Shown here: one piece after another, positions 2,779 through 24,286 of the stretch
Numbering within the stretch: the stretch's first letter is position 1
Layout: each line of letters opens with the position of its first letter
From: an uncultured Bacilli bacterium
GTDB taxonomy: Bacteria; Bacillota_I; Bacilli_A; RF39; UBA660
Assembly (NCBI GenBank): GCA_944332725.1
Contig: CALVKO010000008.1
Coordinates: forward strand, 1 to 37,845
Reading direction: 5' to 3'
DNA: 37,845 bases
Program-made: the position numbers and the translations under genes
Notes under the pieces: generated by a model
What the model was told of the DNA's origin: nothing
The model's input: the letters and a program-made list of their open reading frames with translations, nothing else
Database searches by the model: none

Positions 2779-3711
2779 ATGAAGATTAGATTGGGATATG
2801 TTTCTATTTCTAAAACATTAAATTTGACTTGTTCTAAAACAGTTACCTATACAAACTTTAAAAAAGATAACAATTTTAATAAAATCAATAAAATTATTAT
2901 AGATAACTTAAATAATCTAGAAAAAATTATTGATTACAATATTAAAAACAATATTCATTTCTATCGACTTACATCTAAATTAATTCCCCTTGCTACTAAA
3001 ACAGATGTAGTATTCGATTACATATTAAAATATCAAAAACTATACCAAAAAATAAGTGAGAAAATAAATAATAGTAAAATACGTATCGATGTTCATCCTG
3101 ACCAATTTTGTGTTTTGAATAGTACCAAAAAAGAAGTTTTAGAAAATACTTTTCAAATTTTAGAATACCATTATAAAATTTTAGAAGCCTTAAATATTAA
3201 AAATAAAGTTATCATTCTTCATGTTGGAAGCAATGTTTTTGGTAAAGAAAACAGTATCAAAAGATTTATCAATAACTTCTATAAATTACCCAAATATATT
3301 CAAAAATGTATAGCTGTGGAAAACGATGACAAAATATATAATATTGTGGATTGTCTAAATTTATGTAAAAAGTTAAAGATTCCTTTTGTTTTAGATTATC
3401 ATCACCATGTTTGTAATAATAATGGGATTAATATCGATAATTATTTAAAAGAAATATTCGCAACTTGGAACACTACCCCAAAGATTCATTTTTCATCACC
3501 TAAAAGCAAAACTAAAAAAGAATTTAGAAGTCACAATGATTATATAAATGTTGAAGATTTTATAGAATTTTTAAATAAAATAAAGCATCTAAATATCGAT
3601 TTGGATATTATGCTAGAAGCTAAAGCAAAAGATGAGGCTTTATTTAAATTAGTAAGATTATTAAAATATTATGATTATAAGTTTATTGATGAAACAACAT
3701 TCATAATTTGA
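2779..3711 (+). CDS. uvsE: UV DNA damage endonuclease (UvsE/UVDE family)
   Basis: A 310-aa TIM-barrel endonuclease that nicks DNA 5' of UV photoproducts and other lesions, starting an alternative excision repair. Family landmarks are visible: N-terminal RLGYVSIS, HFYRLTSKLIPL, the metal-binding RIDVHPDQFCVLNS, ILHVGSN, IAVENDD, PFVLDYHHHVCNN, HFSSPK and LDIMLEAKAKD. The length is normal. The ATG at 2779 follows GGTGAG at a 4-base spacing. In sporulating bacteria this enzyme protects spore DNA, and the sigma-G-like promoter upstream fits. It is divergent from the rubredoxin operon and followed by a separately promoted gene. Confidence 0.93.
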   Translation: MKIRLGYVSISKTLNLTCSKTVTYTNFKKDNNFNKINKIIIDNLNNLEKIIDYNIKNNIHFYRLTSKLIPLATKTDVVFDYILKYQKLYQKISEKINNSKIRIDVHPDQFCVLNSTKKEVLENTFQILEYHYKILEALNIKNKVIILHVGSNVFGKENSIKRFINNFYKLPKYIQKCIAVENDDKIYNIVDCLNLCKKLKIPFVLDYHHHVCNNNGINIDNYLKEIFATWNTTPKIHFSSPKSKTKKEFRSHNDYINVEDFIEFLNKIKHLNIDLDIMLEAKAKDEALFKLVRLLKYYDYKFIDETTFII

Positions 3712-3735
3712 CAAATAATTCTTTTTGATTATAAT
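3708..3735 (+). promoter_or_regulatory. Consensus sigma-A promoter of the methyltransferase-like gene
   Basis: TTGACA (3708-3713), a 16-base spacer and TATAAT (3730-3735) form a perfect-hexamer promoter. The -35 overlaps the uvsE stop codon. The downstream gene is therefore transcribed independently in vegetative cells. Confidence 0.8.
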
Positions 3736-3763
3736 ATTAAATGTTTTAAAGGGGGTCTTAAAT

Positions 3764-4423
3764 ATGAACTTAAATGAATTTTTAAATAAATATAAAGATC
3801 AATATCCACAACCCGCTGTTGAATATATTGTAAATAATTTTGGTAAAGTTTTACCTTTAAACAATCCTGATATTTTAAATCAAGTTTATGATGCTTTAGG
3901 AATGTTCAAAGATAGAAACCCTTATCTAGCATACTTAAAGCTATTAGAACAACATTTTGACATTTCTTCTAATATTTTAGAAATTGGTGGCGGATTTTAT
4001 CCAGCTTTTGCCACTCATGTTCGTGATCGTCAACTACAAACAAGAAAAGGTACTATTACCGTTTATGACAAAATGCTAGTTACACAAGATTTACCACATA
4101 TGAAACTAGTAAAACAAGATTTCAAAATCCAAGATTCTGTATCTCCATATGACTTATTAGTAGGAATCTTACCTTGCGATGCTACTACTTTAATTATCAA
4201 AAAAGCCAACGAAGAAAATAAAAATTTCTTTATTGTTTTATGTAATTGTACTCACTTTTCTCGTCAATATTTAATGTTTAATAGACCAACCTTAGAAAAT
4301 TGGCGCAAATATATAAAAGAAGTTTTTGATTCAACCAAAAAAGATAATGAGGAAATGTTAGTTTTAGACTCGCCGACAGAATATACAAATTATAAAGTAT
4401 TAATAAAAAAGCAGAAAAATTAA
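3764..4423 (+). CDS. SAM-dependent methyltransferase-like protein, function unknown
   Basis: A 219-aa soluble protein. Residues ~70-80 read ILEIGGGFYPA, a glycine-rich motif I of Rossmann-type methyltransferases. Later come VYDKML at the acidic strand-2 position and LLVGILPCDATT near motif IV. No substrate signature is evident, and a non-catalytic methyltransferase fold is possible. The start at 3764 was chosen over an upstream in-frame start at 3725 because AAAGGGGG lies 7 bases before it. It is driven by its own strong sigma-A promoter and ends in a terminator, so it is monocistronic. Confidence 0.6.
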   Translation: MNLNEFLNKYKDQYPQPAVEYIVNNFGKVLPLNNPDILNQVYDALGMFKDRNPYLAYLKLLEQHFDISSNILEIGGGFYPAFATHVRDRQLQTRKGTITVYDKMLVTQDLPHMKLVKQDFKIQDSVSPYDLLVGILPCDATTLIIKKANEENKNFFIVLCNCTHFSRQYLMFNRPTLENWRKYIKEVFDSTKKDNEEMLVLDSPTEYTNYKVLIKKQKN

Positions 4424-4436
4424 TTTCTGTTTTTTT
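4412..4436 (+). terminator. Terminator after the methyltransferase-like gene
   Basis: The 6-bp stem CAGAAA/TTTCTG (4412-4417 and 4424-4429) contains the stop codon in its loop and is followed by seven T residues. Confidence 0.7.
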
Positions 4437-6996
4437 AAACGCCTCCGATAATTCCTTTTTTTCTTAAATATATTTTTCTTAAAAAATCGACTGGTACAAC
4501 AGTAAAACTTAATAAAAACATAATTTGAAATTCAAAGAAAGTAAGACCTGATGTTCTAAATAAATCACCACCAAAATAAATTAACAAAACTTGAACTATG
4601 AAAATAAAACTAATAATAAATATAAATGCTTTATTACCACTTAAATGCGACAATAAATTAAGACGATGCGTTCTAGCATTAAAACTATTAAAAATACTAA
4701 TGAATATAAATAAACCAAAGAAAGCTGTTAAAATATATTGTTCGCCACTTCTAAACAATTGATGAAAAATCGGTAATTTCAAAAACAAAATACAAATTAA
4801 AGTCGAATAAATACCTGTAAAAAGTATTTCATCTTTCATATATTGATTGATGATAGGTTCATCTCTTTTTTTAGGTTTCTCTTCCATATATTCTTTTAAT
4901 GGAGCTTCAAAAGAGAACGCTAAAGCAGCTAAAGTATCCATAACCATATTTATCCACAGCATTTGAATAACTGTAACTGGTGTATCAACACCGATAAAAG
5001 GACCAATTATTGATAGACTTACAGCACATATATTAACGGTCAATTGAAAAATAATAAATTTACGAATACTTTTAAAAATAGTTCTTCCAAATAAAATCGC
5101 TTTAGCAATCGACAGAAAATTATTATCAAGAATAACAACTTCACTTGCTTCTTTAGCAACTTCTGTCCCCGAACCAAAAGCAAAACCAACATCGGCTCTT
5201 TTTAAAGCTGGCGCATCATTAACACCATCACCAGTCATGCCGACAACTAAATCTAATTCTTGACTAATTCTAACTAAACGACTTTTATCCTGAGGAATAG
5301 CTCGAGCAACAACCCTTAATTTTGGTAAAACTTCTTTTAACTTCTCATCAGTCATATTTTTCATTTCATCACTAGTTAAAATTAAGTCACCTTCTTGATA
5401 TAAGCCTACTTCTTTAGCTATAGCTAGAGCAGTCAATTTATTATCACCAGTTACCATAACAGTTTGAATTGAAGCCTGTTTTACCAAATCAATCCCTTCA
5501 AAGGCTTCTTTTCTAATTTCATCTTTTATTAATACAAAACCGACTAAAGTTAAATTTTTAACGTTTTCTTTAGAAGAAGCAAAAGCTATAATTCGATTAC
5601 CTTCTTTAGTCAATTTTTTCAAATTATCTTCAATAATCATTTTCTTTTTCAAAAACTTTTTATTGCCTTCACTATCATAATAAAATTCACATTGCTTTAA
5701 AATAACTTCTGGTGCTCCCTTAATTAAATATATATTTTCATTTTTATATTTTATCGTTGTAGAAGAATATTTATTTTTACTATCGAAGGGAATTGTTTCA
5801 ACAACATCATATTGATTCTTATCTTTTATATTGGTAAATTTTAAAATAGCACGGTCAGTAATATTTCCTCCAATTATTTTATCTTTATCATAAGTACTAG
5901 CATTATTATAAACTAACGAAATCAAAGCTATTTCTTTTAAACCTTTTTCTATATTATCAAAACAATCATATTTTTTTAAATCAGCGTTTAAAAAATGAGT
6001 GACCTCTAAGTTACCTTTTGTAATAGTTCCCGTTTTATCACTAAATAAAATATTAATACTTCCGGCCGTTTCTATTCCTGTTAATTTTCGAACTAAAACA
6101 TTATTTTTAAGCATTCTTTTAACATTAGAAGATAAAACCAAAGTAATCATCATTGGTAGCCCTTCTGGAACCGCTACTACTATTACCGTTACGCATAACG
6201 TTAATGCATATAAAATATGCCCACTTATTAATGGTAAATTTGTAACAGTTTCTTTAATTAAATCAATATCAAAATTATTTTTTATAAAAATAACAGAAAA
6301 CAAATAAGACACAAAAACTAAAAAAGCTCCGATATAACCAATTTTACTAATTATTTGCGCTAATTTTCTTAGTCTTAATTTAAGTGGACTTTCCGGTTGT
6401 TCTTGTTGTAGTTCCTTAGAAATAGCACCATAAAAAGTGTTATCTCCCACTTTAGTAACAATCATTGTCGCTTGTTTTGAATAAACAATGGTACCCCGAT
6501 ATACGATTTTATTTTCAATATTTTTATAAATTTCTTTAGTTTCTCCAGTCAAACTAGATTCATCAACACTTATTTCTCCCTCGATAATCTCACCATCAGC
6601 CGGTATTCGATTTCCCGATTCTAACAAAACAATATCCCCAACTACAACTTCCTCAATATCAACTTCTTCAATTTTATTATTTCTTTTAACTCGACATTTT
6701 ATTTTAGAAGACTCTTCTTGTAATTTTTCAAAAGCTTTCTCGCTTCCATATTCGCTAACTGTCGAAATAAAAGAAGCCAAAAATATTGCTATAACTATAC
6801 CAACTGTTTCATACCAATCAAAACTTTGAATTAAAAAAACTGTTTTAATTCCTAAAGCAATCAATAAAATTCTAATAATTGGGTCACCTAAAGTCGCAAT
6901 ATATTGTTTTATAAAACTATTTTTCTTACTCGAATTTATTACATTAGCGCCAAATTTCTTTCTTGATTCAATTACTTCATTATCCGTTAGTCCCAT
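4435..6996 (-). CDS. Calcium-type cation-translocating P-type ATPase (P2)
   Basis: An 853-aa membrane pump that exports cations, most likely Ca2+, using ATP. Domains in order: N-terminal cation-ATPase segment (LTDNEVIESRKKFG), TM1-2, actuator domain with DESSLTGE, TM3-4 with the P2-type ion-binding motif PEGLP, phosphorylation motif DKTGTITKG (Asp acylated), nucleotide-binding KGAPE, hinge motif TGDGVNDAPALKRADVG, and the C-terminal membrane bundle of TM5-10. Length and motifs match the SERCA/PMCA-like bacterial Ca2+ ATPases (YloB and relatives); ion specificity is inferred. The ATG at 6996 follows AGGTGA. A terminator upstream separates it from the next minus-strand genes. Confidence 0.92.
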   Translation of the reverse strand: MGLTDNEVIESRKKFGANVINSSKKNSFIKQYIATLGDPIIRILLIALGIKTVFLIQSFDWYETVGIVIAIFLASFISTVSEYGSEKAFEKLQEESSKIKCRVKRNNKIEEVDIEEVVVGDIVLLESGNRIPADGEIIEGEISVDESSLTGETKEIYKNIENKIVYRGTIVYSKQATMIVTKVGDNTFYGAISKELQQEQPESPLKLRLRKLAQIISKIGYIGAFLVFVSYLFSVIFIKNNFDIDLIKETVTNLPLISGHILYALTLCVTVIVVAVPEGLPMMITLVLSSNVKRMLKNNVLVRKLTGIETAGSINILFSDKTGTITKGNLEVTHFLNADLKKYDCFDNIEKGLKEIALISLVYNNASTYDKDKIIGGNITDRAILKFTNIKDKNQYDVVETIPFDSKNKYSSTTIKYKNENIYLIKGAPEVILKQCEFYYDSEGNKKFLKKKMIIEDNLKKLTKEGNRIIAFASSKENVKNLTLVGFVLIKDEIRKEAFEGIDLVKQASIQTVMVTGDNKLTALAIAKEVGLYQEGDLILTSDEMKNMTDEKLKEVLPKLRVVARAIPQDKSRLVRISQELDLVVGMTGDGVNDAPALKRADVGFAFGSGTEVAKEASEVVILDNNFLSIAKAILFGRTIFKSIRKFIIFQLTVNICAVSLSIIGPFIGVDTPVTVIQMLWINMVMDTLAALAFSFEAPLKEYMEEKPKKRDEPIINQYMKDEILFTGIYSTLICILFLKLPIFHQLFRSGEQYILTAFFGLFIFISIFNSFNARTHRLNLLSHLSGNKAFIFIISFIFIVQVLLIYFGGDLFRTSGLTFFEFQIMFLLSFTVVPVDFLRKIYLRKKGIIGGV

Positions 6997-10187: not shown

Positions 10188-11344
10188 AAAAACTATTAAT
10201 CATTCCATTAATATTCCTATTAACTGGGTGTTGGAATTATCGCGAACTTAATCAATTAGCTATAACAACTGGGATTGCAGTAGATAAAGAAAATGATAAT
10301 TATAAAATAACTATTATGATAGCTAATTCTAAAAAAAGCAGTAGTTCAGATGGTAGTATAACGCCATCAGCAGCTGTTTATGATGGAACAGGTCAGACAA
10401 TTTATGAAGCCTTTAAAGATACATCTTTAAGTGTATCTAAACAAATTTATCTAAGCCATATTGATGTATTAGTATTATCTGAAGAAGTCGCAAAAAATAA
10501 TTTAACTGATGTAATTGATTTTCTATTTCGTTATCCCCAAACAAGAAATAATTTTTATTTAGTTTTAGCAAAGGATAAAAAAGCTAGCGACATCTTAAAA
10601 GTAACTACGCCATTAGAGACATTTCCCTCTCAAAATCTAGCTAAAAATCTTGAAATAACTGATAAATTACAAGGATTTACTTATACAGTCGATTTTACTG
10701 ATTTCACAAAATCACTTGTATCAGAAGGAATAAATCCTATTCTTCCATCAGTAACAGTCATCGGAAATAGTGAAGAAGGAAATAAAGAAGAAAACGTACA
10801 ACAAAATGAACCATCTACTTATTTAAAATTAGACATGTTAGGATTATTTAAAAAAGATAAATTTGTTGCATGGGCTAATCCTAATCAAAGCAAAGGAATC
10901 AATATAATCAATAATAAAATATACATATTAGGAGTTATCATTGATTACCAAAATGAAAAAATAGTAACAGAAATAACCGAAATGAAAACTGATTTTAAAG
11001 TTGAAAATAATAAAGTGAAAATAACTATTGATACAACAGGAGCAATTCAAGAGGTAAATGCTAATGTTGATCTATATAATCTTAAAACTATTGAAGAAAT
11101 TCAAAATTCAGATGTTGAAAAAATTAAAGAATATGTTAATGATGCTATTAATTTAGCCAAAGATAATAAAACAGATATTTTTGGTTTTGGAAACTATGTT
11201 TATAAGAATAATCCTAAAAAATGGAATGAAATAAAAGATAAATGGGACGATGAAATATTCCCTAGTTTAGAAGTAGAAATAGAAGTCAATCTAAAACTTC
11301 AGGCCAAAGGTTCAATAAATAATATCGTCGAGGTGAGAGAATGA
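10184..11344 (+). CDS. Spore germination lipoprotein, GerC family (C subunit)
   Basis: A 386-aa lipoprotein subunit of the germinant receptor. The signal peptide ends in the lipobox LTGC (Cys ~18), followed by the family hallmark WNYRELNQLAITTGIAVD. The rest comprises the three-domain extracellular region, including SHIDVLVLSEEVAK and the conserved C-terminal TDIFGFGNYVYKNNPKKW. It overlaps both neighbours by four bases (ATGA), indicating translational coupling and stoichiometric production with the A and B subunits. Confidence 0.94.
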   Translation: MKKLLIIPLIFLLTGCWNYRELNQLAITTGIAVDKENDNYKITIMIANSKKSSSSDGSITPSAAVYDGTGQTIYEAFKDTSLSVSKQIYLSHIDVLVLSEEVAKNNLTDVIDFLFRYPQTRNNFYLVLAKDKKASDILKVTTPLETFPSQNLAKNLEITDKLQGFTYTVDFTDFTKSLVSEGINPILPSVTVIGNSEEGNKEENVQQNEPSTYLKLDMLGLFKKDKFVAWANPNQSKGINIINNKIYILGVIIDYQNEKIVTEITEMKTDFKVENNKVKITIDTTGAIQEVNANVDLYNLKTIEEIQNSDVEKIKEYVNDAINLAKDNKTDIFGFGNYVYKNNPKKWNEIKDKWDDEIFPSLEVEIEVNLKLQAKGSINNIVEVRE

Positions 11345-12414
11345 AAGTAACTAATTCAGAATATGCTTGTTTATCATCTTTTTTAATAAGATCATTATTT
11401 TTTGGACCAGCTATTTATAGTATCTTACATTTTGCTTTACAAGATGGCTGGATAAGTATCATCGTTTCATTTATTTTAAGCTTTATTCCTTTAATTATTT
11501 ATTATAAGCTACTAAATTGTAATCCTAATGATAATATTGTTAGCTTAAATAACAAATTAGGATTAATAGGAAAAATAATTAATACAATTCTAACAGCTTT
11601 TGTTATTTTTCACGCCAGTCTAATTCTATGGAATTTAACTAACTTCATATATTCACAATTTCTATTCCAAACACCATTAATTGTTATTGCTATTATTATT
11701 TCCTTTGGCATATTTTATATCAGTATTAAAAACCTAACAACTATTGCTAGAACGGGAACTGTTTTCTTTATTATTAGCACTATACTATATTTTATAGCAG
11801 CTTTATCTTTGATTGGCAAATGCGATTTAAATGGGCTTAAACCTATTTTCAACTCAGGTATTATGCCAATTCTAAAGGGAAGTTTTTCTTCTTTAGGACT
11901 TAATATATTTCCTTTATTTATAATTTTAATAATACCGAAAAATAACATCAAAAATAATGACAAAATTATATCATCTTTCTTTAAAGTTTATATTTTCAGA
12001 TATTTGTGCATGCTATCAGTATTAGTAATTTGTGTAGCTATTTTGGGAATAGAATTAACTAACCTTTATCAATATCCGGAATATCACATTTTAAAAACTA
12101 TTAATATTGCTAACTTTTTTCAAAGAGTCGAATCAGTTTTATCAGTTCAGTGGATATTTGATGCTGTCATGTCAATAGCATTATGCCTTTATTATGTTAA
12201 AGAAAGTATAACCAAAACATTTAATTTAAAAAACAAATTTAATTTAATAAATATTATTTGCATTATTAGTATTTTAATTATCGCAAATTATATCTTTACT
12301 AGTAATACGGTAGCAGAAACATTTTATAAAAATATTTATCCTTTTCTAACTTCAATCTTTTTCTTAATTATTCCTTTGATAATATTAATAATAGTTAAAG
12401 TTAAGAAAACTTAA
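11341..12414 (+). CDS. Spore germination permease-like protein, GerB family (B subunit)
   Basis: A 357-aa membrane protein of the APC-superfamily-related GerAB/endospore germination permease family, with about ten predicted transmembrane helices. It is thought to hold the germinant-binding pocket of the receptor. It opens with the polar MKVTNSEYACLSSFLIRS and then hydrophobic helices through the protein. It is the third gene of the A-C-B operon and overlaps the C subunit by ATGA. It ends tail to tail with the DUF368 gene; the operon terminator seems to lie inside that gene's 3' end. Confidence 0.92.
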   Translation: MKVTNSEYACLSSFLIRSLFFGPAIYSILHFALQDGWISIIVSFILSFIPLIIYYKLLNCNPNDNIVSLNNKLGLIGKIINTILTAFVIFHASLILWNLTNFIYSQFLFQTPLIVIAIIISFGIFYISIKNLTTIARTGTVFFIISTILYFIAALSLIGKCDLNGLKPIFNSGIMPILKGSFSSLGLNIFPLFIILIIPKNNIKNNDKIISSFFKVYIFRYLCMLSVLVICVAILGIELTNLYQYPEYHILKTINIANFFQRVESVLSVQWIFDAVMSIALCLYYVKESITKTFNLKNKFNLINIICIISILIIANYIFTSNTVAETFYKNIYPFLTSIFFLIIPLIILIIVKVKKT

Positions 12415-16749: not shown

Positions 16750-16775
16750 TATTAGAAAATGAAAGGGTGGATTTT

Positions 16776-16982
16776 ATGTGTAATAATGAAAATGAATCTT
16801 GCAAATGCATAGCTGAAATATTAACTGTTATATGTATTTTACAACAAAACGCAAATTGTTCTGATTCTTGTTTAGATACATGTGATCGTGGATTTTTAGG
16901 TTGTGGCACAACTACTTATACTTGTAATACTAGACCAATAATGTTATATACTTGTTGTGGTAATGGAACACCTTGGGATTGA
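16776..16982 (+). CDS. Spore coat protein CotY/CotZ-like, 5' part (gene interrupted)
   Basis: The N-terminal portion of a cysteine-rich CotY/CotZ-family outer coat/crust protein. It starts at ATG 16776 (MCNNENESCKCIAEIL), 5 bases after the strong ribosome-binding site AAAGGGTGG. An in-frame GTG at 16767 lies inside that site and is rejected. The family motif region RPIMLYTCCGNGTPW is followed by a single foreign codon and TGA at 16980. Residues 1-67, through Trp (TGG 16974-16976), belong to the gene; Asp68 and the stop come from the inserted element. The rest of the protein resumes at 24038. Joined at TGG, the product is 148 aa with Cys-rich motifs throughout, the same length as B. subtilis CotZ. 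As it stands, only a truncated 68-aa peptide could be made. Confidence 0.85.
   Translation: MCNNENESCKCIAEILTVICILQQNANCSDSCLDTCDRGFLGCGTTTYTCNTRPIMLYTCCGNGTPWD
16974..16976 (+). repeat. Left attachment core (attL crossover)
   Basis: TGG shared with 24038-24040, in the same phase of the coat reading frame. Large serine recombinases exchange at a 2-bp core with only a few bases of identity between sites, so a 3-bp match is normal. Left of it is coat sequence; right of it (GATTGACG) is element sequence. Confidence 0.7.
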
Positions 16983-17030
16983 CGTTAAAGTGATAAATTA
17001 TAATTAAAAGATAACATAAATATTGACACT

Positions 17031-17057
17031 AAACGGCATATATAAGTCGTTTTTTTA
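17031..17057 (+). terminator. Terminator just inside the left end of the element
   Basis: The stem AAACGGC/GTCGTTT (17031-17037 with 17046-17052, one G-U pair) is followed by a run of T. It would stop transcripts started at the coat promoter before they enter the cargo while the element is in place. Confidence 0.7.
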
Positions 17058-17073
17058 TTATTTAATAATCAAA

Positions 17074-17088
17074 TACGCCACATCGCCA
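17074..17088 (+). repeat. Inverted repeat, left copy
   Basis: TACGCCACATCGCCA is the exact reverse complement of 22104-22118. Similarity continues imperfectly on one side: GGCCTAC at about 17101-17107 corresponds to GTAGCC at 22090-22095. The GC-rich core stands out in this AT-rich DNA. The two copies bracket the cargo genes but not the recombinase. Confidence 0.75.
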
Positions 17089-17339
17089 ACTATAAATAAT
17101 GGCCTACCTTTATAAATTTAAGAAAATTTTCATTTTTTTAAAAAGTACTTATAAAAAATTATTTAAATGTGATAAATAGTAATATATTTTTTATTATAAA
17201 TAAATAAGTAGAAATTTTAACTCTAATAATAAACATTAGGGGTATTTTACAATCAATAAAAATAAATAATAATTGATATTAAATATTGCTAATAAACGTT
17301 GTTTAAAGTCTTAAAAAATTACAAATTATTGGAAATATA

Positions 17340-17348
17340 TGGTAAAAT
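17340..17348 (+). promoter_or_regulatory. Extended -10 promoter of the NTPase gene
   Basis: TGG-TAAAAT (TAAAAT at 17343-17348) lies 45 bases before the ATG. The -35 region is weak. An AAAGGG ribosome-binding site lies unusually far (about 14 bases) from the start codon. Confidence 0.4.
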
Positions 17349-17393
17349 AAGGTTGTATTAATTAATTTTTTTCAAAGGGATAGTGATTAAACA

Positions 17394-20228
17394 ATGATTA
17401 AAAAACACAATAAAGATAAAAGCAGTGAAAATAATAATATATTTTTAGAAACACCTATTGATAAAATTGAAGATGATAAGTTTGGATGTGTATGCTATTC
17501 CAAACAAATCGTTTCTGCTTTTGAAAAAGGTGCTAAATTTATAGCAATTGATGGCGAATATGGTGTAGGGAAATCAAGTATATTAAATTTAACAAAGAAA
17601 CTAATTGAAGACAAAAATAAAAATAAAATATTTAATCATTTTAGACAAAAAAAAGATTATTTTGTAAATATAAATTTTTTAAATATTAATGACGTTTCCT
17701 CTAAAGAATCGGACAAGATAAACAATTATCATAGATATTTTGTAAATCAAACAGCTAATGATTTATATAGAAATCCATATGACATTGAAAAACTTTTTTA
17801 TCATAATTTTATTTCATATTCAACGATTTCATTAAAAAATAATAATTTATTTAAAAAAATTATTGATAAAGCATTATTAATATTATTGGCTTTTATATCA
17901 CTTTATTTAATCTATTCAGGCTTCTTTAAAAATTTCGAATTACTAAAGGGCTTATACAACTTTTCTACAGAAATAATGCCATATATCTTATTTATAGTAT
18001 TTATCTTATTAATTTTATATGGATATGGTTTTTATAAGCCTGATAAGTCTGAAATAAGTCCTATGCTCGAAGTAGATAAATGTAGGAATAATTTGTGCAA
18101 AATATTATTTAATAAAATTCCTAAAAACAGCAATGTTTATTTTATATTAGATGACTTAGATAGATTAGAAAATAAATTACAATTGCAAATCATTTCATTG
18201 TTATATAATGAATATTTTCCTTTAGATAAAATCATTAAAGATATAAATTTAAAATTTATTTTTATGATTAATATAAGTGAATTGAATAAATCAAACAAAT
18301 TAAATAATACTAACAATATTAACGTAAATAAATTATTTGACTATATCGTAAATATATCTAATAACCAAATCACAATTTTAAGAAATTATTTAATTGAAAA
18401 CATAAAAAATAATACTATATTAAGAACCATATTTGATATTCCACAAAAAGATTATATAATAGGTTTGATTTTAAACAACTACAATAGTATAAGAAAAATT
18501 AAACATTTTCTCAATAGAGTTATTACAAAATATATTTATTTAACCGATAAAAATTATAAAGATTTAAATAATGCTCAATTAATATGCATATGTATATTAA
18601 TTAATTTAACAGATACTGAAACATTAAATAATAATATAAATAATATAATACATAATTATTCACCAGAAAAAAATGATGAAGGCAACAACATATCAAATAT
18701 TATAAAAGAGTTATATGAAAGAAACCTAATTGATAATAATTATTATGTTTATTTGTATAATTTTATAGACATAGATGATTTATTAAATAATGATGAACAA
18801 TTTATATATAATATATTAAATAATTTATCAAAATTAAAAGAAGATAATTTGATTAAAATGTATGAAATATTAGATAGAGAAAATGTTTCATTTTCAAAAA
18901 TATATAATGAGATATATAAATATATTCCCAATAATTCAAAAATACTATTACTAGGAAATAAAACATTTAATAGTTTTATGGAATCAAATTATCAAATTGA
19001 TTATGAATTATTTAAAAATTTATATAGAAATCCTTTTATTTATTTTTGTTATGAATTTTTAAATAATAAATATGGTTATCTTATGGATGATGAAATTGAA
19101 TTGTTAGAAAAATATTTTGAAAATTTTAAAGAACAATCTTCTATAGTTGGCAATAAAGAAAAAGATAAATTTTTAAATGAATTAAACATTTTTATAAAAA
19201 ACATGAAATACAATATTAAATTTTTTGATTTTCAAGAATATTTTAATTGGTTGGAACTTGATAAAAATTTATTTACTTTAATTTATAATCAAAAAGAAAT
19301 AAAAGTATCAGTTATATATGAAATGATTTTAAATAAAAACCTATCTTGGAATAATATTAAAGATTTTATTAATGAATCAATAATAAATGATATGTTAAAT
19401 ATCGAAGATGATAAGTTTAGACTACAAATAGAAGAAAGTTATTTGAAATGGAGCAAATCATTTGATTTTATGATTCAAATAATCTATAAAGAAAAAAGAA
19501 TTATTAGCGATATTGAAGAAATTTTTACAAAATTAAATCAATTTGAAGACAAAAAAATAGATTTAGAAACACTAAAAACAATTATAAATAAATATGGCTA
19601 TTTAAAAATATTTGACAAATATTTAATTAATAACTTAAAAGAAAAAGAAAAAGATACAATCTGTTACATTAATGAAAATAAATTTGATATTTCTGAAAAT
19701 ATAATAATTAAAATAAATGAATTAGAATACAAATACAAATTTAAAGAACACTATAATAATTTATTTTTAAAATACAAATATTATAAACTATATATATATT
19801 CAAGAGCAATAAAAGATATAACATTCGACATTAATTTAAAATTAAAATCAAACGAAAAATATATACACTCTTTATTGGAAATTTTTGAATCATTAAATAC
19901 TGATTGGAAGGACTACAATTTTACTGACAATTTTAAATCTTTAATAATTAAAGAAATAAATATAGATACAATAAACTTAACTGATAAAGATTTTTGGAAA
20001 ATATTAAAGTTAATTCCACAAATAAATAATCATAATGAATCATTTAAATTTTTCAATAGAATTAGAAATTTAAATTTATTAAATAAGTTTTGCTCATATT
20101 GTTCGCGAAATTGTAATGATAAAGATTTCATAAATAATTTGAATTTATTTGTTTCAGAATTTGGCACAACAGGAAATAAAATTGTAATTACAAAATTAAA
20201 AAATAAAATCGAAGAAAAGCAAAAATAG
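17394..20228 (+). CDS. YobI/KAP-like membrane-spanning P-loop NTPase
   Basis: A 944-aa protein. Walker A GEYGVGKSS is at residues 54-62. Two adjacent transmembrane segments lie at ~160-176 and ~195-213. Walker B with following Arg, ILDDLDRLEN, is at 251-260. A further ~680 residues are charged, helical and repeat-rich. An NTPase core interrupted by two membrane helices is the layout of KAP/YobI-type P-loop ATPases, which sit on the inner membrane face and are repeatedly found in mobile elements and implicated in phage defence. That role is by family and context, not shown here. The coding DNA is even more A+T- and Asn/Ile/Lys-rich than the flanking housekeeping genes, consistent with acquisition. 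It is monocistronic, ending in a terminator at 20221-20252. Confidence 0.75.
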   Translation: MIKKHNKDKSSENNNIFLETPIDKIEDDKFGCVCYSKQIVSAFEKGAKFIAIDGEYGVGKSSILNLTKKLIEDKNKNKIFNHFRQKKDYFVNINFLNINDVSSKESDKINNYHRYFVNQTANDLYRNPYDIEKLFYHNFISYSTISLKNNNLFKKIIDKALLILLAFISLYLIYSGFFKNFELLKGLYNFSTEIMPYILFIVFILLILYGYGFYKPDKSEISPMLEVDKCRNNLCKILFNKIPKNSNVYFILDDLDRLENKLQLQIISLLYNEYFPLDKIIKDINLKFIFMINISELNKSNKLNNTNNINVNKLFDYIVNISNNQITILRNYLIENIKNNTILRTIFDIPQKDYIIGLILNNYNSIRKIKHFLNRVITKYIYLTDKNYKDLNNAQLICICILINLTDTETLNNNINNIIHNYSPEKNDEGNNISNIIKELYERNLIDNNYYVYLYNFIDIDDLLNNDEQFIYNILNNLSKLKEDNLIKMYEILDRENVSFSKIYNEIYKYIPNNSKILLLGNKTFNSFMESNYQIDYELFKNLYRNPFIYFCYEFLNNKYGYLMDDEIELLEKYFENFKEQSSIVGNKEKDKFLNELNIFIKNMKYNIKFFDFQEYFNWLELDKNLFTLIYNQKEIKVSVIYEMILNKNLSWNNIKDFINESIINDMLNIEDDKFRLQIEESYLKWSKSFDFMIQIIYKEKRIISDIEEIFTKLNQFEDKKIDLETLKTIINKYGYLKIFDKYLINNLKEKEKDTICYINENKFDISENIIIKINELEYKYKFKEHYNNLFLKYKYYKLYIYSRAIKDITFDINLKLKSNEKYIHSLLEIFESLNTDWKDYNFTDNFKSLIIKEINIDTINLTDKDFWKILKLIPQINNHNESFKFFNRIRNLNLLNKFCSYCSRNCNDKDFINNLNLFVSEFGTTGNKIVITKLKNKIEEKQK

Positions 20229-20252
20229 CATTAAAATTATGCTATTTTTTTT
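20221..20252 (+). terminator. Terminator of the YobI-like gene
   Basis: A stem of at least 9 bp around AAATAGCAT/ATGCTATTT (20223-20231 with 20239-20247) is followed by T residues. It overlaps the stop codon. Confidence 0.85.
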
Positions 20253-20309
20253 GCTATGATAGTATTATAAAATCAAATATATAAATATACTAGTAGATTA
20301 AGTTTAAAA

Positions 20310-20555
20310 TTAATTTACCTTAAAAAATTCAGCAATATCAATTTTTAAGGCTTCTGAAATTCTTCCAAGTACTGCAATGGTTAAATGTTTATTACGTTTT
20401 TCATTTTCAATATCACATATATATTCTCTTGACATTTCTGTCATGTCTGCTAAATCTTGTTGTGTCAAATTTCTTTCTAATCTAAATTTTTTTATGTTTT
20501 TTCTAATTATCGAATAATAATATTCATTATCATGAATATATGCTTTTTCCTTCAT
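20310..20555 (-). CDS. XRE-family HTH transcriptional regulator
   Basis: An 81-aa Cro/C1-type repressor-like protein. The helix-turn-helix spans about residues 32-56: LTQQDLADMTEMSREYICDI followed by ENEKRN. This is a standard DNA-binding domain with no extra effector domain. It starts with ATG at 20555 behind GGTGAA. It is divergently arranged from the small membrane-protein gene with a palindrome (20608-20618) between them. It is the likely master switch for element genes, analogous to repressors of phages and skin-like islands. Confidence 0.88.
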   Translation of the reverse strand: MKEKAYIHDNEYYYSIIRKNIKKFRLERNLTQQDLADMTEMSREYICDIENEKRNKHLTIAVLGRISEALKIDIAEFFKVN

Positions 20556-20607
20556 CTATTTCACCAACCTATAATTAGTATGTTATTTTTTTTCAAAAAT
20601 ATATATA

Positions 20608-20634
20608 GGCTAATAGCCACATTTGTGATATAAT
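20608..20634 (+). promoter_or_regulatory. Promoter with operator-like palindrome in the XRE intergenic region
   Basis: Extended -10 TGA-TATAAT (TATAAT 20629-20634) lies before the 73-aa gene. The perfect palindrome GGCTA-A-TAGCC (20608-20618) occupies its -35 zone, the usual place for repressor binding. The divergent XRE gene begins about 50 bases away, so the site could also control it. Confidence 0.5.
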
Positions 20635-20655
20635 AAATTATGAAAGGAGTTAAAT

Positions 20656-20877
20656 ATGGGAAAGCCAAAAAAAAATAATGAATTTAAATGGTATCATTGG
20701 TTTGGAATAGGCCTACTTTTTCTTATGATTTATATTGGAATATCTGAAGGAAACGAAGAAACAGTTGAAGACCAAATTGACAGATTAAATCGTGAAAGTT
20801 GCAGTTCACAAACAAACACTTTTTACAAATGCAGTTGGAGTTTTTGGGAAGATAGATGCGTATGTAAAGAAAGATAA
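20656..20877 (+). CDS. Small single-pass membrane protein with Cys-rich tail
   Basis: A 73-aa protein. It has a basic N-terminus (MGKPKKNNEFKWYHW), one transmembrane helix (residues ~16-31), then an acidic segment and a tail with four Cys (SCSSQTNTFYKCSW, EDRCVCKER). The latter is probably extracytoplasmic and disulphide-bonded. The ribosome-binding site is AAAGGAG, 7 bases before the ATG. Its own promoter and terminator flank it. No family is recognised; an accessory, immunity or exclusion function is conceivable but unsupported. Confidence 0.6.
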   Translation: MGKPKKNNEFKWYHWFGIGLLFLMIYIGISEGNEETVEDQIDRLNRESCSSQTNTFYKCSWSFWEDRCVCKER

Positions 20878-20885
20878 ACCAATAG

Positions 20886-20910
20886 AAAAGTACATTTTGT
20901 ACTTTTTTTT
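20886..20910 (+). terminator. Terminator after the 73-aa gene
   Basis: The 8-bp stem AAAAGTAC/GTACTTTT (20886-20893 and 20899-20906) is followed by more T residues. Confidence 0.85.
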
Positions 20911-20961
20911 GTATATTTTTTTATAAAATTTGATAATTTTAAAACTTTTTTTATCAAAAAG

Positions 20962-20991
20962 TTGATTATAAACGAAATGGCATGATATAGT
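20962..20991 (+). promoter_or_regulatory. Sigma-A promoter of the RepA-like gene, with downstream palindrome
   Basis: TTGATT (20962-20967), 18 bases, then TATAGT (20986-20991), with a TGn extension at the -10. The transcribed leader contains TTGTCG at about 20993 and the perfect palindrome TTGTCGACAA at 21019-21028, possible binding sites for a regulator or replication protein. A hairpin-like repeat AACTTTTT...AAAAAGTT precedes the -35. Confidence 0.5.
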
Positions 20992-21054
20992 GTTGTCGCT
21001 AGCAAAAAAAAGATTAATTTGTCGACAATTAAAAATTTAAGAAAGGAGAACAAT

Positions 21055-22080
21055 ATGAAAAATTTTAAATTAGAAAGTTTTGATTCAATTAAAGAAGAAG
21101 AAATTGAATGGTTATGGAAGCCATATATTCCACTTGGAAAATTAACAATGTTCGCTGGAGATCCTAGCGTCGGAAAAAGCTTTATAAGTACATTTTTGGC
21201 AAGTACAATATCTACTGGAAGCAAATTTCCGTTTAGTGATGAAATAGTTGAAAGTGGTAATGTTATAATTTTAAATGCTGAAGATGGTAATGCTGATTGT
21301 ATTAAAAAGAGATTACGATTAAGTAATGCTAATTTTGAAAATATCTATACCTTATTAAGTGTAGATAATAAGAAATTTTTCACACTAAAAAATTTATCTG
21401 ATTTAGAGGATATGATTCAAGAAGTTAAGCCAAAACTAATAATTATTGACCCTATTACCTCTTATTATGGAGAAGGAGTTGATACTTTTAAAGATAGTTC
21501 TGTTCGAGCTATACTTGCACCAGTTGTAGAATTAGTTTCTAAATATAAAGTTGCCTTACTAGGAATAATACATTTTAATAAAGGAAATGATAAAGCAATA
21601 TATAAAATGAATGGTAGTATTGCAAATATGGGCTTACCTCGTTCTGTTATTTATGCAGTGCATTCTAATAACAATGATGAAAGATTACTAATTCATATAA
21701 AATCTAGTAATGCAGAATTAGGAGAAAGTATTGCTTATCGTATTACAGATAATGGGATTGAATGGCTTGGAATACGTGGAAAAATTAATGCGGATGAAGT
21801 AATTTCTAATGAAGAATCTAATCAATATGAAATTGCCTGTGATTTTATATTAGATTATTTGAAAGATGGTAAACAGCTCGGAAGCAAACTATTGGAAAAT
21901 GCTTTAGAAAACGGAATATCAAAAAGAACTCTAGAACGTGCTAGAGCTGATTTAAAGAAAAAAAATATTATTGATAATGAAGTTATTAATTCAAAAACTT
22001 ATTGGTATCTTATTGATTCTAAAAATAAAATTAAAAATGAAACTAATTTAGATGATATTAATCCATTTGATGACATTTAA
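21055..22080 (+). CDS. RepA-like AAA-family ATPase/helicase
   Basis: A 341-aa RecA-fold ATPase. Walker A GDPSVGKS is at residues 35-42, Walker B LIIIDP at 128-133, and the C-terminal ~80 residues include a probable winged-helix segment (DGKQLGSKLLENALENGISK). This organisation (AAA_25-type, plasmid RepA/DnaB-like) is common in replication modules of plasmids, phages and integrative elements, so it could drive replication of the excised circle. That is inference. ATG 21055 is preceded by GAAAGGAG at a good distance; an upstream in-frame start at 21019 lies inside the palindrome and is rejected. A long structured gap follows. Confidence 0.78.
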   Translation: MKNFKLESFDSIKEEEIEWLWKPYIPLGKLTMFAGDPSVGKSFISTFLASTISTGSKFPFSDEIVESGNVIILNAEDGNADCIKKRLRLSNANFENIYTLLSVDNKKFFTLKNLSDLEDMIQEVKPKLIIIDPITSYYGEGVDTFKDSSVRAILAPVVELVSKYKVALLGIIHFNKGNDKAIYKMNGSIANMGLPRSVIYAVHSNNNDERLLIHIKSSNAELGESIAYRITDNGIEWLGIRGKINADEVISNEESNQYEIACDFILDYLKDGKQLGSKLLENALENGISKRTLERARADLKKKNIIDNEVINSKTYWYLIDSKNKIKNETNLDDINPFDDI

Positions 22081-22279
22081 AACTATTTAGTAGCCAAATA
22101 AAATGGCGATGTGGCGTAGTAAAAAGACTATGAAAATAATCATAGTCTCTCGCCATTAATATTTATATATTGAATCCAGTTAAATTATACCATAATATAA
22201 ATTTTAAGTCTATATAATCATTATTGTTATGCAAATTATAAATACACACTAATATAATATATAAAGGGGTTGTGATATT
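22081..22279 (+). other. Structured intergenic region after the RepA-like gene
   Basis: Contains the right copy of the inverted repeat (22104-22118). It is nested in a larger potential stem: AATGGCG (22102-22108) pairs with CGCCATT (22151-22157), enclosing the 8-bp hairpin GACTATGA/TCATAGTC (22126-22133 and 22140-22147). The A+T-rich remainder holds TATAAT at 22253-22258 shortly before the 38-aa gene. It could be a terminator-like or regulatory RNA element, or a DNA site for recombination. Confidence 0.55.
22104..22118 (-). repeat. Inverted repeat, right copy
   Basis: TGGCGATGTGGCGTA, the exact reverse complement of 17074-17088, about 5.0 kb away, with weaker matching beyond it (GTAGCC upstream). 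See the left copy. Confidence 0.75.
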
Positions 22280-22396
22280 ATGAATGTTGAAGTTTTTTAT
22301 AACGAAAATGGTAAAACATTTCAAGAGATTATGGAATACTTTTTAATAGAAATGTGTGATACACAAAGTGCCAGTTTTATTGAGAAATATGCCTAA
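22280..22396 (+). CDS. 38-aa protein upstream of the serine recombinase
   Basis: A short frame, MNVEVFYNENGKTFQEIMEY and on to EKYA, preceded by AAAGGGG about 10 bases before the ATG and a TATAAT further up. It lies immediately before the recombinase gene in the same orientation. Mixed hydrophobic and acidic composition suggests a small folded or helical peptide. Small frames beginning in this style are, from memory, common beside Firmicute large serine recombinases. A role as accessory or directionality factor is possible but unproven. Confidence 0.55.
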   Translation: MNVEVFYNENGKTFQEIMEYFLIEMCDTQSASFIEKYA

Positions 22397-22399
22397 ATA

Positions 22400-22408
22400 T
22401 GATATAAT
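22400..22408 (+). promoter_or_regulatory. Extended -10 promoter of the recombinase gene
   Basis: TGA-TATAAT (TATAAT 22403-22408) is 37 bases before the recombinase ATG. This looks like vegetative sigma-A; I found no convincing sigma-E promoter here. Confidence 0.5.
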
Positions 22409-22444
22409 ATTACTGTCAATATGTGTTATCTAGAAGGAGGCAAA

Positions 22445-24007
22445 ATGGTAGATAATAACACATATAAAGTTGGTTTATATATTAGATTATCTAGGGAAGA
22501 TGAAGATAATAATGGAGAAAGTGAAAGTATTACTAATCAAAGAAATTATTTGTTAGAATATGTAAAAAATAATCACTTTATTCTAATTGATGAATATGTT
22601 GATGACGGGTTTACTGGAACAAATTTTGAGAGACCAGCATTTAAAAGAATGATTAAAGATATAGAACTTGGTAAAATAAATTGCGTTATTACTAAAGATA
22701 TGTCAAGACTAGGAAGAGATTATATTGGTATAGGAACCTATATGGAAAAATACTTTCCAGAGCATAATATAAGATATATCGCTGTCAATGATAATATTGA
22801 TTTAAAGGATGGTAAAATAGACAATATGGCTCCTATTAGAGCAGTATTTAATGACTATTATGCTAAAGATATTTCTGACAAAGTTAAAAGCACTATTACT
22901 AATAAAAAAAGAAATGGACAATTTTTAGGTGGAGTCCCACCCTATGGTTATAAGTTTGAAAGCGATGACAATCATTATAAATTAGTAATAGATGAAGAAA
23001 CTAGCATAGTTGTTAAGAGAATGTTTAATATGTTTGTTGGTGGCAAAAGTTTAAAATATATTGCTGATACACTAACAAGTGAGAATATTCCTATTCCTAG
23101 TATCCATAAAAATTTAAATAGAGGCCTTAAGTCTACTGCTTATGGAGTATGGCAAACAAGAACTATTGATGAAATACTTAAAAATCCTACATACATAGGA
23201 AACTTAACGCAAGGTAGAAGAAAGAAAATTAATTATAAAATTAAAAAAGTTGTTAGAGTCCCTAAAGAACAATGGATTGTATGCGAAAACACACATGAGC
23301 CTATTATAGATAAAGAAACATTTGAGCAAGTACAAAATATCTATGAAAAGAATAAAAGCTTAAAGCGTAGCAAAAATCATTTATTATTAAGTGGTTTTAT
23401 ATATTGCAAAGAATGTGGACATAGAATTGGAATTAGTCAAAGCTCTAATAAAAAATTTTATTGTAGTTGTAATTATTACAAAAAATACTCTAAATTAGGC
23501 CTATGTACGCCCCATTCTATACCTTATAATGTGTTAGAAGATATAATACTAAAAGAAATAAGAAAAGAATGCAAAAAGAGTGTTAAAGGCGATAAATTTA
23601 AAGACATAATTAAAAGTAATGACAAAAAAGAAAAAGCCAAAGTCAATTTAATACAATTAATTAAACAAAAAAAGCAAGATATAGAAAATACAAAAAATGC
23701 AATTGATGATTTATATATAGAAAAACTTAAAAAAAATATAAGTAGTGAAAGATATACTAGTGTATATAATAAATTAAATAGCGAATTTAACGTTTTAAAC
23801 GAAGATTTAAAAGCACTAGAAACAGATTATTCATATTTGCTAGGAAACGTTAAAAACAGCCCTAGTATCAATTATACAAAGGCTGTTAACGAATATTTAG
23901 CATTAAAAAATCCTACTAGAGAATTACTTGCGAACTTAATAGACAAAATTGTTATAGATGAAGATAAAAATATACAAATATACTACAAAATAAAAAAAGC
24001 ATGGTAA
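22445..24007 (+). CDS. Large serine site-specific recombinase
   Basis: A 520-aa large serine integrase. Its resolvase catalytic domain (~8-150) has the nucleophile Ser16 in YIRLSRED, catalytic-arginine motif SRLGRDYIGIGTYME (88-102) and VNDNID. The recombinase domain (~165-280) includes GGVPPYGYK and LKNPTYIGNL. The zinc-ribbon DNA-binding domain has CKECG (321-325) with Cys340/342 and Cys354, and a Lys-rich coiled coil (~385-455) precedes the C-terminal tail. All domains are intact, so the enzyme is probably active. ATG 22445 sits behind GAAGGAGG; an upstream in-frame start at 22421 is rejected. It ends 30 bases from the right attachment core, and would catalyse integration and, with a directionality factor, excision of this element. 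Confidence 0.95.
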   Translation: MVDNNTYKVGLYIRLSREDEDNNGESESITNQRNYLLEYVKNNHFILIDEYVDDGFTGTNFERPAFKRMIKDIELGKINCVITKDMSRLGRDYIGIGTYMEKYFPEHNIRYIAVNDNIDLKDGKIDNMAPIRAVFNDYYAKDISDKVKSTITNKKRNGQFLGGVPPYGYKFESDDNHYKLVIDEETSIVVKRMFNMFVGGKSLKYIADTLTSENIPIPSIHKNLNRGLKSTAYGVWQTRTIDEILKNPTYIGNLTQGRRKKINYKIKKVVRVPKEQWIVCENTHEPIIDKETFEQVQNIYEKNKSLKRSKNHLLLSGFIYCKECGHRIGISQSSNKKFYCSCNYYKKYSKLGLCTPHSIPYNVLEDIILKEIRKECKKSVKGDKFKDIIKSNDKKEKAKVNLIQLIKQKKQDIENTKNAIDDLYIEKLKKNISSERYTSVYNKLNSEFNVLNEDLKALETDYSYLLGNVKNSPSINYTKAVNEYLALKNPTRELLANLIDKIVIDEDKNIQIYYKIKKAW

Positions 24008-24037
24008 AGGTATTATTTGTAACTATATGTACAAACG

Positions 24038-24040
24038 TGG
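24038..24040 (+). repeat. Right attachment core (attR crossover)
   Basis: TGG in coat-gene phase, followed by AGT ATG CCA. The bases to its left (TACAAACG) belong to the element. Reading the coat frame leftwards meets a stop at 24020-24022, confirming that the coat sequence begins about here. Confidence 0.7.
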
Positions 24041-24286
24041 AGTATGCCAACTACTAAAGATACAACCGATTGTACTGATACTCCAACACCAGCAAATTGC
24101 TCAAGTGTATTTAGAATTGAAAAAATCGATGGTTGCTGCGCTACATTTAGAGTATTAGCTAGCAATACCGATCCTACTACACAAGCAGCAATTCCATATG
24201 TAGCAACCAATTCTTTCTTTACTATGAACTTAAATTGTGTTTGTAGTTTAAGATGTTTACAAGATACATATGTAGAATGTTTATAA
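24038..24286 (+). CDS. Spore coat protein CotY/CotZ-like, 3' part (gene interrupted)
   Basis: The C-terminal 81 residues after the shared Trp codon of the split coat protein. It contains VFRIEKIDGCCATFRVL, aligning with the B. subtilis CotZ segment FRVERVHGSCATLSLL, and the end FFTMNLNCVCSLRCL, matching VDLDCFCAINCL. The in-frame ATG at 24044 has no properly spaced ribosome-binding site, so this half is unlikely to be translated alone. The reading frame and strand match the 5' half at 16776. A terminator follows directly after the stop, so the intact gene would be monocistronic. Confidence 0.85.
   Translation, partial: WSMPTTKDTTDCTDTPTPANCSSVFRIEKIDGCCATFRVLASNTDPTTQAAIPYVATNSFFTMNLNCVCSLRCLQDTYVECL

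What the first reader, a model, noticed from the sequence alone, without database searches (positions are those of the whole stretch)
21055..22080. Replication-type ATPase carried in a coat-gene element
A RepA/DnaB-like RecA-fold ATPase with a probable C-terminal winged helix and a palindrome-rich leader (TTGTCGACAA, 21019-21028) suggests that the excised circle may replicate. Skin-like elements are usually viewed as passive circles lost with the mother cell. A replicating circle would be a way for the element to escape or to amplify its cargo.
Basis: inference. Interest (0 to 1): 0.5.

Follow-up and report, generated by a model that had tools for sequence, protein, structure and literature searches.

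The report
Plasmid-type helicase in spore-gene element
A mobile DNA element that interrupts a spore-coat gene carries a gene of the kind that plasmids and phages use to copy their DNA, so the element may be able to copy itself after it pops out, although no copying has been shown.

Summary
The ORF at 21055-22080 is real: a 341-aa AAA_25 RecA-fold ATPase with conserved catalytic residues and a predicted C-terminal winged helix. Its best solved fold match is RSF1010 RepA helicase, tied with RadA. Relatives include primase-helicase fusions (TOPRIM or Prim-Pol) on plasmids and in phages, and stand-alone proteins, most often near large serine recombinases, sometimes with relaxases.

It lies in a 7,064-bp element that splits a CotZ-like coat gene. 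The gene is uninterrupted in sister genomes, holds a near-identical element in one other species, and a different element without the ATPase in a third. Element genes are far less diverged between the two species (recombinase dS 0.014) than host genes (0.4-0.8), so the element moved horizontally. A 38%-identical ATPase with similar neighbours sits in an element inside a GerS-like gene.

Not shown: replication itself. No primase, initiator, iterons or DnaA boxes were found. The palindrome is ordinary and operator-placed. A stable hairpin containing a 15-mer repeated (inverted) near the left end is the only origin candidate and is not conserved elsewhere. New variant of a known kind.

The parts
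16767..16976 (+). 5' part of the split CotZ-like coat gene
   Evidence: PF10612 E 1.4e-6; match to uninterrupted genes ends at 16976
16974..16976 (.). TGG shared by both junctions (left copy)
   Evidence: 3-base overlap of the two flank matches in uninterrupted genes
16977..24037 (.). Element body; 7,064 bp with one TGG copy
17074..17088 (+). 15-mer, left copy of an inverted repeat
17394..20228 (+). 944-aa P-loop membrane protein, probable cargo
   Evidence: weak PifA match E 8.2e-8 over residues 14-78; no Pfam match above cut-off; no counterpart seen in the G249 element
20310..20555 (-). XRE-type regulator, divergent from the ATPase
   Evidence: HTH_3 E 1.6e-11
20656..20877 (+). 73-aa small protein, membrane-type by eye
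   Evidence: homologue before the ATPase of the G249 element, E 1.5e-12
20962..20991 (+). promoter-like site before the ATPase
   Evidence: TTGATT-18-TATAGT, 9 of 12 with TG; consensus only, 27 sites found against 19.6 expected in the region
21019..21028 (.). palindrome TTGTCGACAA, possible operator
   Evidence: not enriched
21055..22080 (+). AAA_25 / RepA-type ATPase with C-terminal winged helix
22095..22170 (.). stable hairpin behind the ATPase gene, origin candidate
   Evidence: z -7.2; its region holds the most stable 76-nt windows of those scanned
22104..22118 (-). 15-mer, right copy of the inverted repeat
22280..22396 (+). 38-aa microprotein directly before the recombinase, candidate directionality factor
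   Evidence: similar small ORFs before related recombinases
22448..24007 (+). large serine recombinase (ORF may start at 22421)
   Evidence: Resolvase, Recombinase and zinc-ribbon domains
24038..24040 (.). TGG shared by both junctions (right copy)
24041..24286 (+). 3' part of the split CotZ-like coat gene
   Evidence: PF10612 E 1.4e-6; in-frame join seen in relatives

Best explanation
The gene encodes a stand-alone helicase-type ATPase of the RepA/AAA_25 group, the motor half of primase-helicase modules of plasmids, integrative elements and phages. In this element it most likely serves maintenance of the excised circle. It would be transcribed from a promoter that the divergent XRE protein represses. 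After the serine recombinase excises the element, the ATPase would form a ring, be placed on the circle by its winged helix and unwind it, and host primase and polymerase would copy it, so that the circle survives division, can re-insert, or can pass to another cell. Shown here: family, catalytic residues, predicted fold with winged helix, purifying selection, a similar gene order in a second spore-gene element, an uninterrupted target in sister genomes, and horizontal movement of the element. Inferred: ring formation, helicase activity, repression by XRE, the loading site, and replication itself. Replication would matter most in growing cells or new recipients; in the mother cell it would be a dead end.
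For: AAA_25 101.5 bits. Relatives: TOPRIM-AAA_25 fusions of 623 aa on mobilizable plasmids; a Prim-Pol-AAA_25 fusion that is the only replication-like gene among the six listed features of the 6.8-kb plasmid pCG2; a fusion with a sub-threshold Prim-Pol match in the same host family, G136; phage proteins annotated primase/polymerase or 'replication protein B' among the rows listed. Best VIA-align fold RSF1010 RepA, Z 21.2 over 211 residues. Catalytic residues the same in 47 of 47. A RepA-like phage protein with a matching set of catalytic residues was shown to be a 5'-3' helicase (PMC8965321, passages). Stand-alone relatives occur with serine recombinases, with tyrosine-integrase-like genes, with Mob, and in phage-like contigs, so the shared function does not depend on one recombinase type. 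Purifying selection: 16 of 47 synonymous against 18 of 202 non-synonymous sites changed in the C-terminal tract, p 4e-5. Order small protein - ATPase - recombinase recurs in the G249 element. Horizontal movement: recombinase dS 0.014 and ATPase residues 1-258 dS 0.019 against host polC 0.62 and the two coat halves 0.38 and 0.80, with a sharp drop in identity at 24037/24038.
Against: No primase, initiator, relaxase, iteron array or DnaA box found in the element. No circle junction in the MAG or IMG/VR. The 12-mer core of the inverted repeat is in no fetched locus other than G000/G013 (162 loci), and no window behind the G249 ATPase is among the six most stable of that element. RadA, a recombination helicase, is tied with RepA in the VIA-align comparison and ahead of it in the sequence profile and in Foldseek; the best NCBIfam match is RadB, far below its cut-off. 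A different element at the same site in G004 does without the ATPase, and only 4 of 243 family genomes and 9 of 395 class genomes, the window's own genome counted in both, match the ATPase profile at E<=1e-25, so it is not general to such elements.
Confidence: 0.55

Rival explanations
1. A recombination or DNA-processing helicase of RadA type: it helps the incoming or excised element through strand exchange, repair or transfer of single strands, without starting replication of the circle.
For: RadA tied with RepA in VIA-align (20.5 against 21.2), first in Foldseek and in the sequence profile (E 3.6e-13 against 4.8e-8 for RepA); RadB is the best, though sub-threshold, NCBIfam match.
Against: RadA and RadB models score far below their cut-offs (15.2 against 403 and 27.6 against 172.4 bits). 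Relatives are fused to primase domains, which fits replication better.
Confidence: 0.2
2. A partner or controller of the serine recombinase: the ATPase, through its winged helix, promotes excision or regulates the recombinase operon.
For: 43 of 63 scored stand-alone relatives have a recombinase-like gene within three genes and 39 of 63 an XRE-like gene, against 2 of 15 fused ones with a recombinase. The palindrome at 21019-21028 and a second TTGTCG at 20993 could be operator sites.
Against: The G004 element at the same site has a 52%-identical recombinase and no ATPase. Other stand-alone relatives lie with tyrosine-integrase-like or Mob genes instead. A microprotein directly before the recombinase is a better candidate directionality factor.
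Confidence: 0.15
3. A relic or passenger without a function in this element, carried over from an ancestral integrative element or phage.
For: No partner genes for replication were found; rare among relatives (4 of 243 and 9 of 395 genomes).
Against: Open frame with conserved catalytic residues and selection against amino-acid change (p 4e-5); a similar gene order is kept in a second element at 38% ATPase identity.
Confidence: 0.1

Closest known systems
RepA helicase of plasmid RSF1010
   Same: RecA fold and a matching set of catalytic residues; best VIA-align match (Z 21.2, rmsd 3.1 over 211 residues)
   Different: 14% identity; here an added C-terminal winged helix, and no initiator, primase or iteron origin beside it (partners RepC and RepB as named in PMC8965321 passages)
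SCCmec Cch2/CCPol-MP operon (PMC7581432)
   Same: a helicase gene next to a large serine recombinase in an integrated cassette thought to replicate after excision; there too replication 'remains to be demonstrated in vivo' (passages)
   Different: SCC has a primase pair and three iterons; its target rlmH (recalled) is not a spore gene; homology of Cch2 to the window protein was not tested
gin element in gerE of Bacillus cereus ATCC10987 (PMC5595907)
   Same: non-prophage element with serine recombinases inside a sporulation gene, recently transferred by an unknown mechanism (passages)
   Different: 'replicat' and 'ATPase' each occur 0 times in the main text
skin of Clostridioides difficile (PMC5025042)
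   Same: serine recombinase element in a mother-cell gene, excised as a circle, with a directionality factor (passages and abstract start)
   Different: its circle is reported lost after cell division; 'replicat' occurs 0 times
Integrative, partly mobilizable elements of gut Bacillota that carry the stand-alone ATPase (L006-L009, L173-L175)
   Same: stand-alone ATPase behind a tyrosine-integrase-like gene (L006-L008, L174) or before a Mob gene (L009, L173-L175)
   Different: the window element has a serine recombinase and no relaxase gene
GP46 helicase of Lactococcus phage F13 (PMC8965321)
   Same: stand-alone RepA-like RecA-fold protein with a matching set of catalytic residues, tested as a 5'-3' helicase (passages)
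   Different: protein of a virulent phage; 'winged' occurs 0 times in the paper; homology to the window protein was not tested here

Membership tests
RepA-type / AAA_25 ATPase | PF13481 score above its cut-off | tested here: met
   101.5 against 27 bits
RepA-type / AAA_25 ATPase | Walker A Lys, motif 1a Glu, Walker B Asp, motif 3 His and a conserved Arg | tested here: met
   K41, E76, D132, H173, R196 the same in 47 of 47; which Arg is the finger was not tested
RepA-type / AAA_25 ATPase | RepA rather than RadA or KaiC as nearest fold | tested here: inconclusive
   RepA 21.2, RadA 20.5, KaiC 19.9; RepA and RadA tied
RepA-type / AAA_25 ATPase | ring formation and DNA unwinding | not testable with these tools
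   needs protein
RSF1010-type replicon | linked initiator, primase and iteron origin | tested here: not met
   none recognised among the element ORFs scanned; no iteron array
skin-like sporulation element | large serine recombinase element inside a sporulation gene that reads through without it | tested here: met
   joined site with up to 2 mismatches in 11 of 18 genus genomes and in none of the three with an insertion
skin-like sporulation element | excision in the mother cell restores the gene | not testable with these tools
   needs sporulating cells
SCC-type replicative cassette | Cch or Cch2 helicase with CCPol-MP or LP1413, and iterons | tested here: inconclusive
   recombinase only distantly CcrB-like (125.6 against 900 bits); no second replication gene or iterons seen; Cch models not searched by name
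integrative mobilizable element | own relaxase | tested here: not met
   no relaxase match above cut-off among the element ORFs scanned (the XRE protein has a sub-threshold MobT match to its HTH part, 16.6 against 600 bits); an oriT used by a foreign relaxase is not excluded
RadA (Sms) | NCBIfam TIGR00416 score above cut-off | tested here: not met
   15.2 against 403 bits
KaiC | PF06745 score above cut-off | tested here: not met
   18 against 26.6 bits

The most novel reading that the evidence does not exclude
Some 'intervening elements' of spore genes are not passive introns but small integrative plasmids. They leave a spore-coat or germination gene by a serine recombinase, copy their circle with their own RepA-type helicase and borrowed host priming, and so persist and spread between species while seeming to be harmless, developmentally removed insertions.
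Probability: 0.38. Interest if true: 0.65.

Novelty: new variant of a known kind. Interest (0 to 1): 0.45.

Why it matters
Spore-gene insertions are usually described as prophage-like elements that the mother cell removes. How non-phage ones spread is open: the gin paper calls the transfer mechanism unknown (passage). A helicase-type ATPase of plasmid kind in two such elements, in different spore genes, together with clear horizontal movement of one, gives a testable answer: they may survive as replicating circles. It also offers a small system (5-7 kb) in which excision, copying and transfer can be separated, and a natural control, an element at the same site without the ATPase.

Tried and rejected
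Palindrome as an origin: not enriched, no special fold, operator-like place. Iterons and DnaA boxes: none in the element (only TTATNCACA was sought, and its two sites in the window lie outside the element). Hairpin 22095-22170 as a known plasmid origin or oriT: best plasmid match E 0.05 over 39% of the query; among fetched loci one 37-base match at E 0.005. Circle junction: 0 in viral contigs and 0 in the own MAG. The own genome holds one copy of the ATPase. Anti-phage models for the ATPase: no match. Solved structures by the single sequence: no match. DNA relatives of 20200-24037 in phage records: 3 records, short pieces only. The 4-5-kb 'Bacteriophage sp.' records that first looked like replicating circles are linear, unverified scaffolds with a tyrosine-integrase-like gene (L006-L008) or a Mob_Pre gene (L009) beside the ATPase, that is, probably pieces of integrative elements; I do not count them as plasmids.

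Limits: the neighbour count scored 78 loci: 75 of the 80 fetched from IMG/VR plus 3 chromosomal ones. Two contigs that seem to duplicate another were left out beforehand (L136, L140), and three more (L142, L145, L147) dropped out because the crude gene caller or the match threshold missed the ATPase. 'Recombinase', 'XRE', 'Mob' and 'tyrosine integrase' there mean similarity to one to three chosen sequences; the recombinase label also takes in shorter proteins that share only the C-terminal part of the 610-aa kind. Stand-alone against fused was cut at 430 aa. Contigs are not independent. The microprotein count of 18 was made by eye from printed candidates, and some of these resemble each other only loosely; five recombinase loci (L019, L031, L032, L160, L177) gave no row because the search motif was not found, and L162, L099 and L121 showed no such protein. 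Names given by eye or from memory, not from a call: terminase-like genes (sequences), the tyrosine integrase of L006, germination-receptor genes, polC, and 'membrane-type' for the small protein. Whether the RepA relation is closer than the RadA relation could not be settled.

Full report
What is there. The ORF at 21055-22080 encodes 341 residues. It matches PF13481 AAA_25 far above its cut-off, and KaiC, RadA and RadB models below theirs. PHROGs gives DNA polymerase/primase and primase/helicase families next to families of unknown function. A structure prediction from a 47-sequence alignment is confident (mean pLDDT 88.3, pTM 0.77): a RecA-type core followed by a winged helix, which also folds on its own. 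Foldseek puts RadA first, the sequence profile too, and among viral proteins a phage DNA primase comes first. The winged helix alone resembles many winged helices, among them the Rpa2 domain solved with archaeal primase (Z 10.8), at the same Z as cullin domains, so no function follows from it. The residues expected of an active ATPase of this group are the same in 47 of 47 sequences. The list of such residues in a tested phage helicase comes from passages of PMC8965321, which also says that AAA_25 proteins had no known function described (2022).

Where it lies. Both halves of a CotZ-like gene flank the element. Blast of the two flanks against relatives gives adjoining matches with a 3-base overlap, TGG, in nine uninterrupted genomes (G001, G002, G006, G007, G008, G009, G012, G014, G016); two more uninterrupted ones (G005, G011) align less neatly. 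The joined reading frame runs ...GNGTPW-S-MPTTKD... in the four relatives printed. The join site, with up to 2 mismatches, is found in 11 of 18 genomes of the genus and in none of the three that carry an insertion (G000, G013, G004). Of the four other misses, G003, G005 and G009 have an open frame of 156 codons over the gene's 3' part, and for G017 no such gene was found. G013 (record title 'uncultured Bacilli bacterium') carries the same element in the same place. G004 carries a different, shorter element there with a 52%-identical recombinase and a RelB/YafQ toxin-antitoxin pair and no ATPase. So the ATPase is not needed to sit at this site.

The element moves. Between G000 and G013 host genes differ by dS 0.62 (polC) and 0.38 and 0.80 (the two coat halves), but the recombinase by 0.014, ATPase residues 1-258 by 0.019, the small protein by 0, the 944-aa gene by 0.11 and the XRE gene by 0.15. 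Identity falls abruptly at the right end of the element (100% over 24008-24037, 86.7% after). At the left end the step is smaller (97.6% inside, 94.3% in the coat half, 86% beyond), where the coat half is well conserved in other species too (92-98% in the closest nine genomes). This fits site-specific insertion rather than descent. Against a simple reading, a stretch of host genes at 11157-12414 is also 98-100% identical, so other exchange occurs. The last 83 codons of the ATPase are a divergent tract (dS 0.45, dN 0.095): the winged helix has been exchanged or has diverged, yet under selection against amino-acid change (16 of 47 synonymous and 18 of 202 non-synonymous sites, p 4e-5).

What its relatives do. 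On plasmids, 16 records match. The four whose proteins I scanned are two TOPRIM-AAA_25 fusions (L010, L011), another with a TOPRIM domain (L013), and, in the 6.8-kb pCG2, a Prim-Pol fusion (L012). Seventy-five phage records match. Among 100 relatives searched with the sequence itself, the window's own genome and G013 have strong matches and two others weak ones. In the host family, 4 of 243 genomes match a profile at E<=1e-25: the window; G136, where the ATPase follows a Prim-Pol-like domain just under Pfam's cut-off (20.6 against 22.8 bits); G249; and G151. G013 is not listed among those 243, so it seems not to have been drawn. In the class, 9 of 395 genomes match, the window's included, with fused forms (L172, L178, L179), stand-alone forms before Mob (L173-L175), and one among serine recombinases (L177). 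In IMG/VR and three chromosomal loci, 43 of 63 stand-alone ATPases (61 viral, 2 chromosomal) have a recombinase-like gene within three genes and 39 of 63 an XRE-like gene; of 15 fused ones (14 viral, 1 chromosomal), 2 have a recombinase. The stand-alone form is thus often part of a module repressor - ATPase - serine recombinase, but 20 of 63 have none near, and some of these lie with tyrosine-integrase-like and Mob genes or in phage-like contigs. The common denominator is mobile-element DNA metabolism, not one recombinase.

A second element of similar make. In G249 a 38%-identical ATPase is preceded by a longer homologue of the window's small protein (E 1.5e-12), and followed by a 114-aa protein and a 46%-identical recombinase. 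This element splits a lipoprotein gene whose open frame is about 330-350 codons in most of the relatives listed, against 248 here. The intact protein of G018 resembles the germination lipoprotein GerS (E 3.7e-12, though below the curated cut-off). I saw no counterpart of the 944-aa gene there, so that gene looks like cargo, while small protein, ATPase and recombinase look like the core.

Origin. Nothing like iterons or DnaA boxes was found in the element. Directly behind the ATPase gene lies a hairpin (22095-22170, z -7.2), in the region of the most stable 76-nt windows scanned (-14.0 kcal/mol, against -11.6 elsewhere in the element and at best -11.1 in the flanks). Part of it is a 15-mer whose only other copy in the window, inverted, is at 17074-17088 near the left end of the element; G+C-rich repeats of this kind are not expected by chance (3 observed, 0 in 30 simulated sequences). 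In SaPIs the origin lies directly downstream of the rep gene (passage of PMC7581432), which makes this place attractive, but no such structure stands out behind the ATPase in the G249 element and the 12-mer core is in no other fetched element. It stays an unexplained candidate.

Mechanism and judgement. I judge a replication or maintenance role the most likely (0.55), mainly from the relatives, the conserved active site and the fact that the element spreads. A recombination-type helicase, a partner of the recombinase, and a relic are live rivals. Literature: I saw passages of PMC5595907, PMC7581432, PMC4191935, PMC8965321, PMC5704250 and PMC5025042, and search listings otherwise. The review of integrative mobilizable elements says that replication of excised ones had never been studied (passage of PMC5704250), and that replication of excised ICEs is established for several. 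In seven searches of open-access papers I saw no report of a replicating spore-gene element of this kind apart from functional phages such as SPbeta; subscription papers are mostly not held. The finding is a new variant of a known kind: replicative integrated cassettes are proposed for SCC and described for ICEs, but not, as far as I could see, for a non-phage spore-gene element.

Noticed in passing
22280-22396 (+); also L064, L073, L161 and further recombinase loci: Microprotein of about 31-60 aa (loosely ENGK-x-L/F-x-EI) directly before the recombinase in 18 recombinase genes judged by eye; candidate directionality factor or leader peptide, with no Pfam or NCBIfam match above cut-off for the window copy.
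   Followed up: partly
L064 (G004:C27:1-5000), about 485-2827: A different element of about 2.3 kb at the same coat-gene site: recombinase plus RelB/YafQ toxin-antitoxin pair.
   Followed up: partly
L161, L074 and G023:C56: A GerS-like lipoprotein gene appears split in three genomes (open frames 248, 255 and 254 codons, mostly 327-376 elsewhere). G249 carries the ATPase element; in G019 a recombinase and a Fic-type protein lie before the right half.
   Followed up: partly
L073 (G005:C27), 2733-4836: A related recombinase lies beside a C1q/BclA_C-type exosporium-like gene piece, perhaps a third kind of spore-surface target.
   Followed up: no
17074-17088 and 22104-22118: Inverted 15-mer; in the circle the two copies would bracket the recombinase and the att junction. 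Function unknown.
   Followed up: partly
22380-22408 (+): A sigma70-like promoter match (11 of 12, with TG) before the recombinase, which might mean expression in growing cells rather than only in the mother cell (consensus match only).
   Followed up: no
17394-20228 (+): 944-aa P-loop protein with a weak PifA match, possible defence cargo.
   Followed up: no
11157-12414: Genes that look like germination-receptor genes are 98-100% identical between G000 and G013 while host DNA just to the right is 70-90% identical: separate recent exchange.
   Followed up: no
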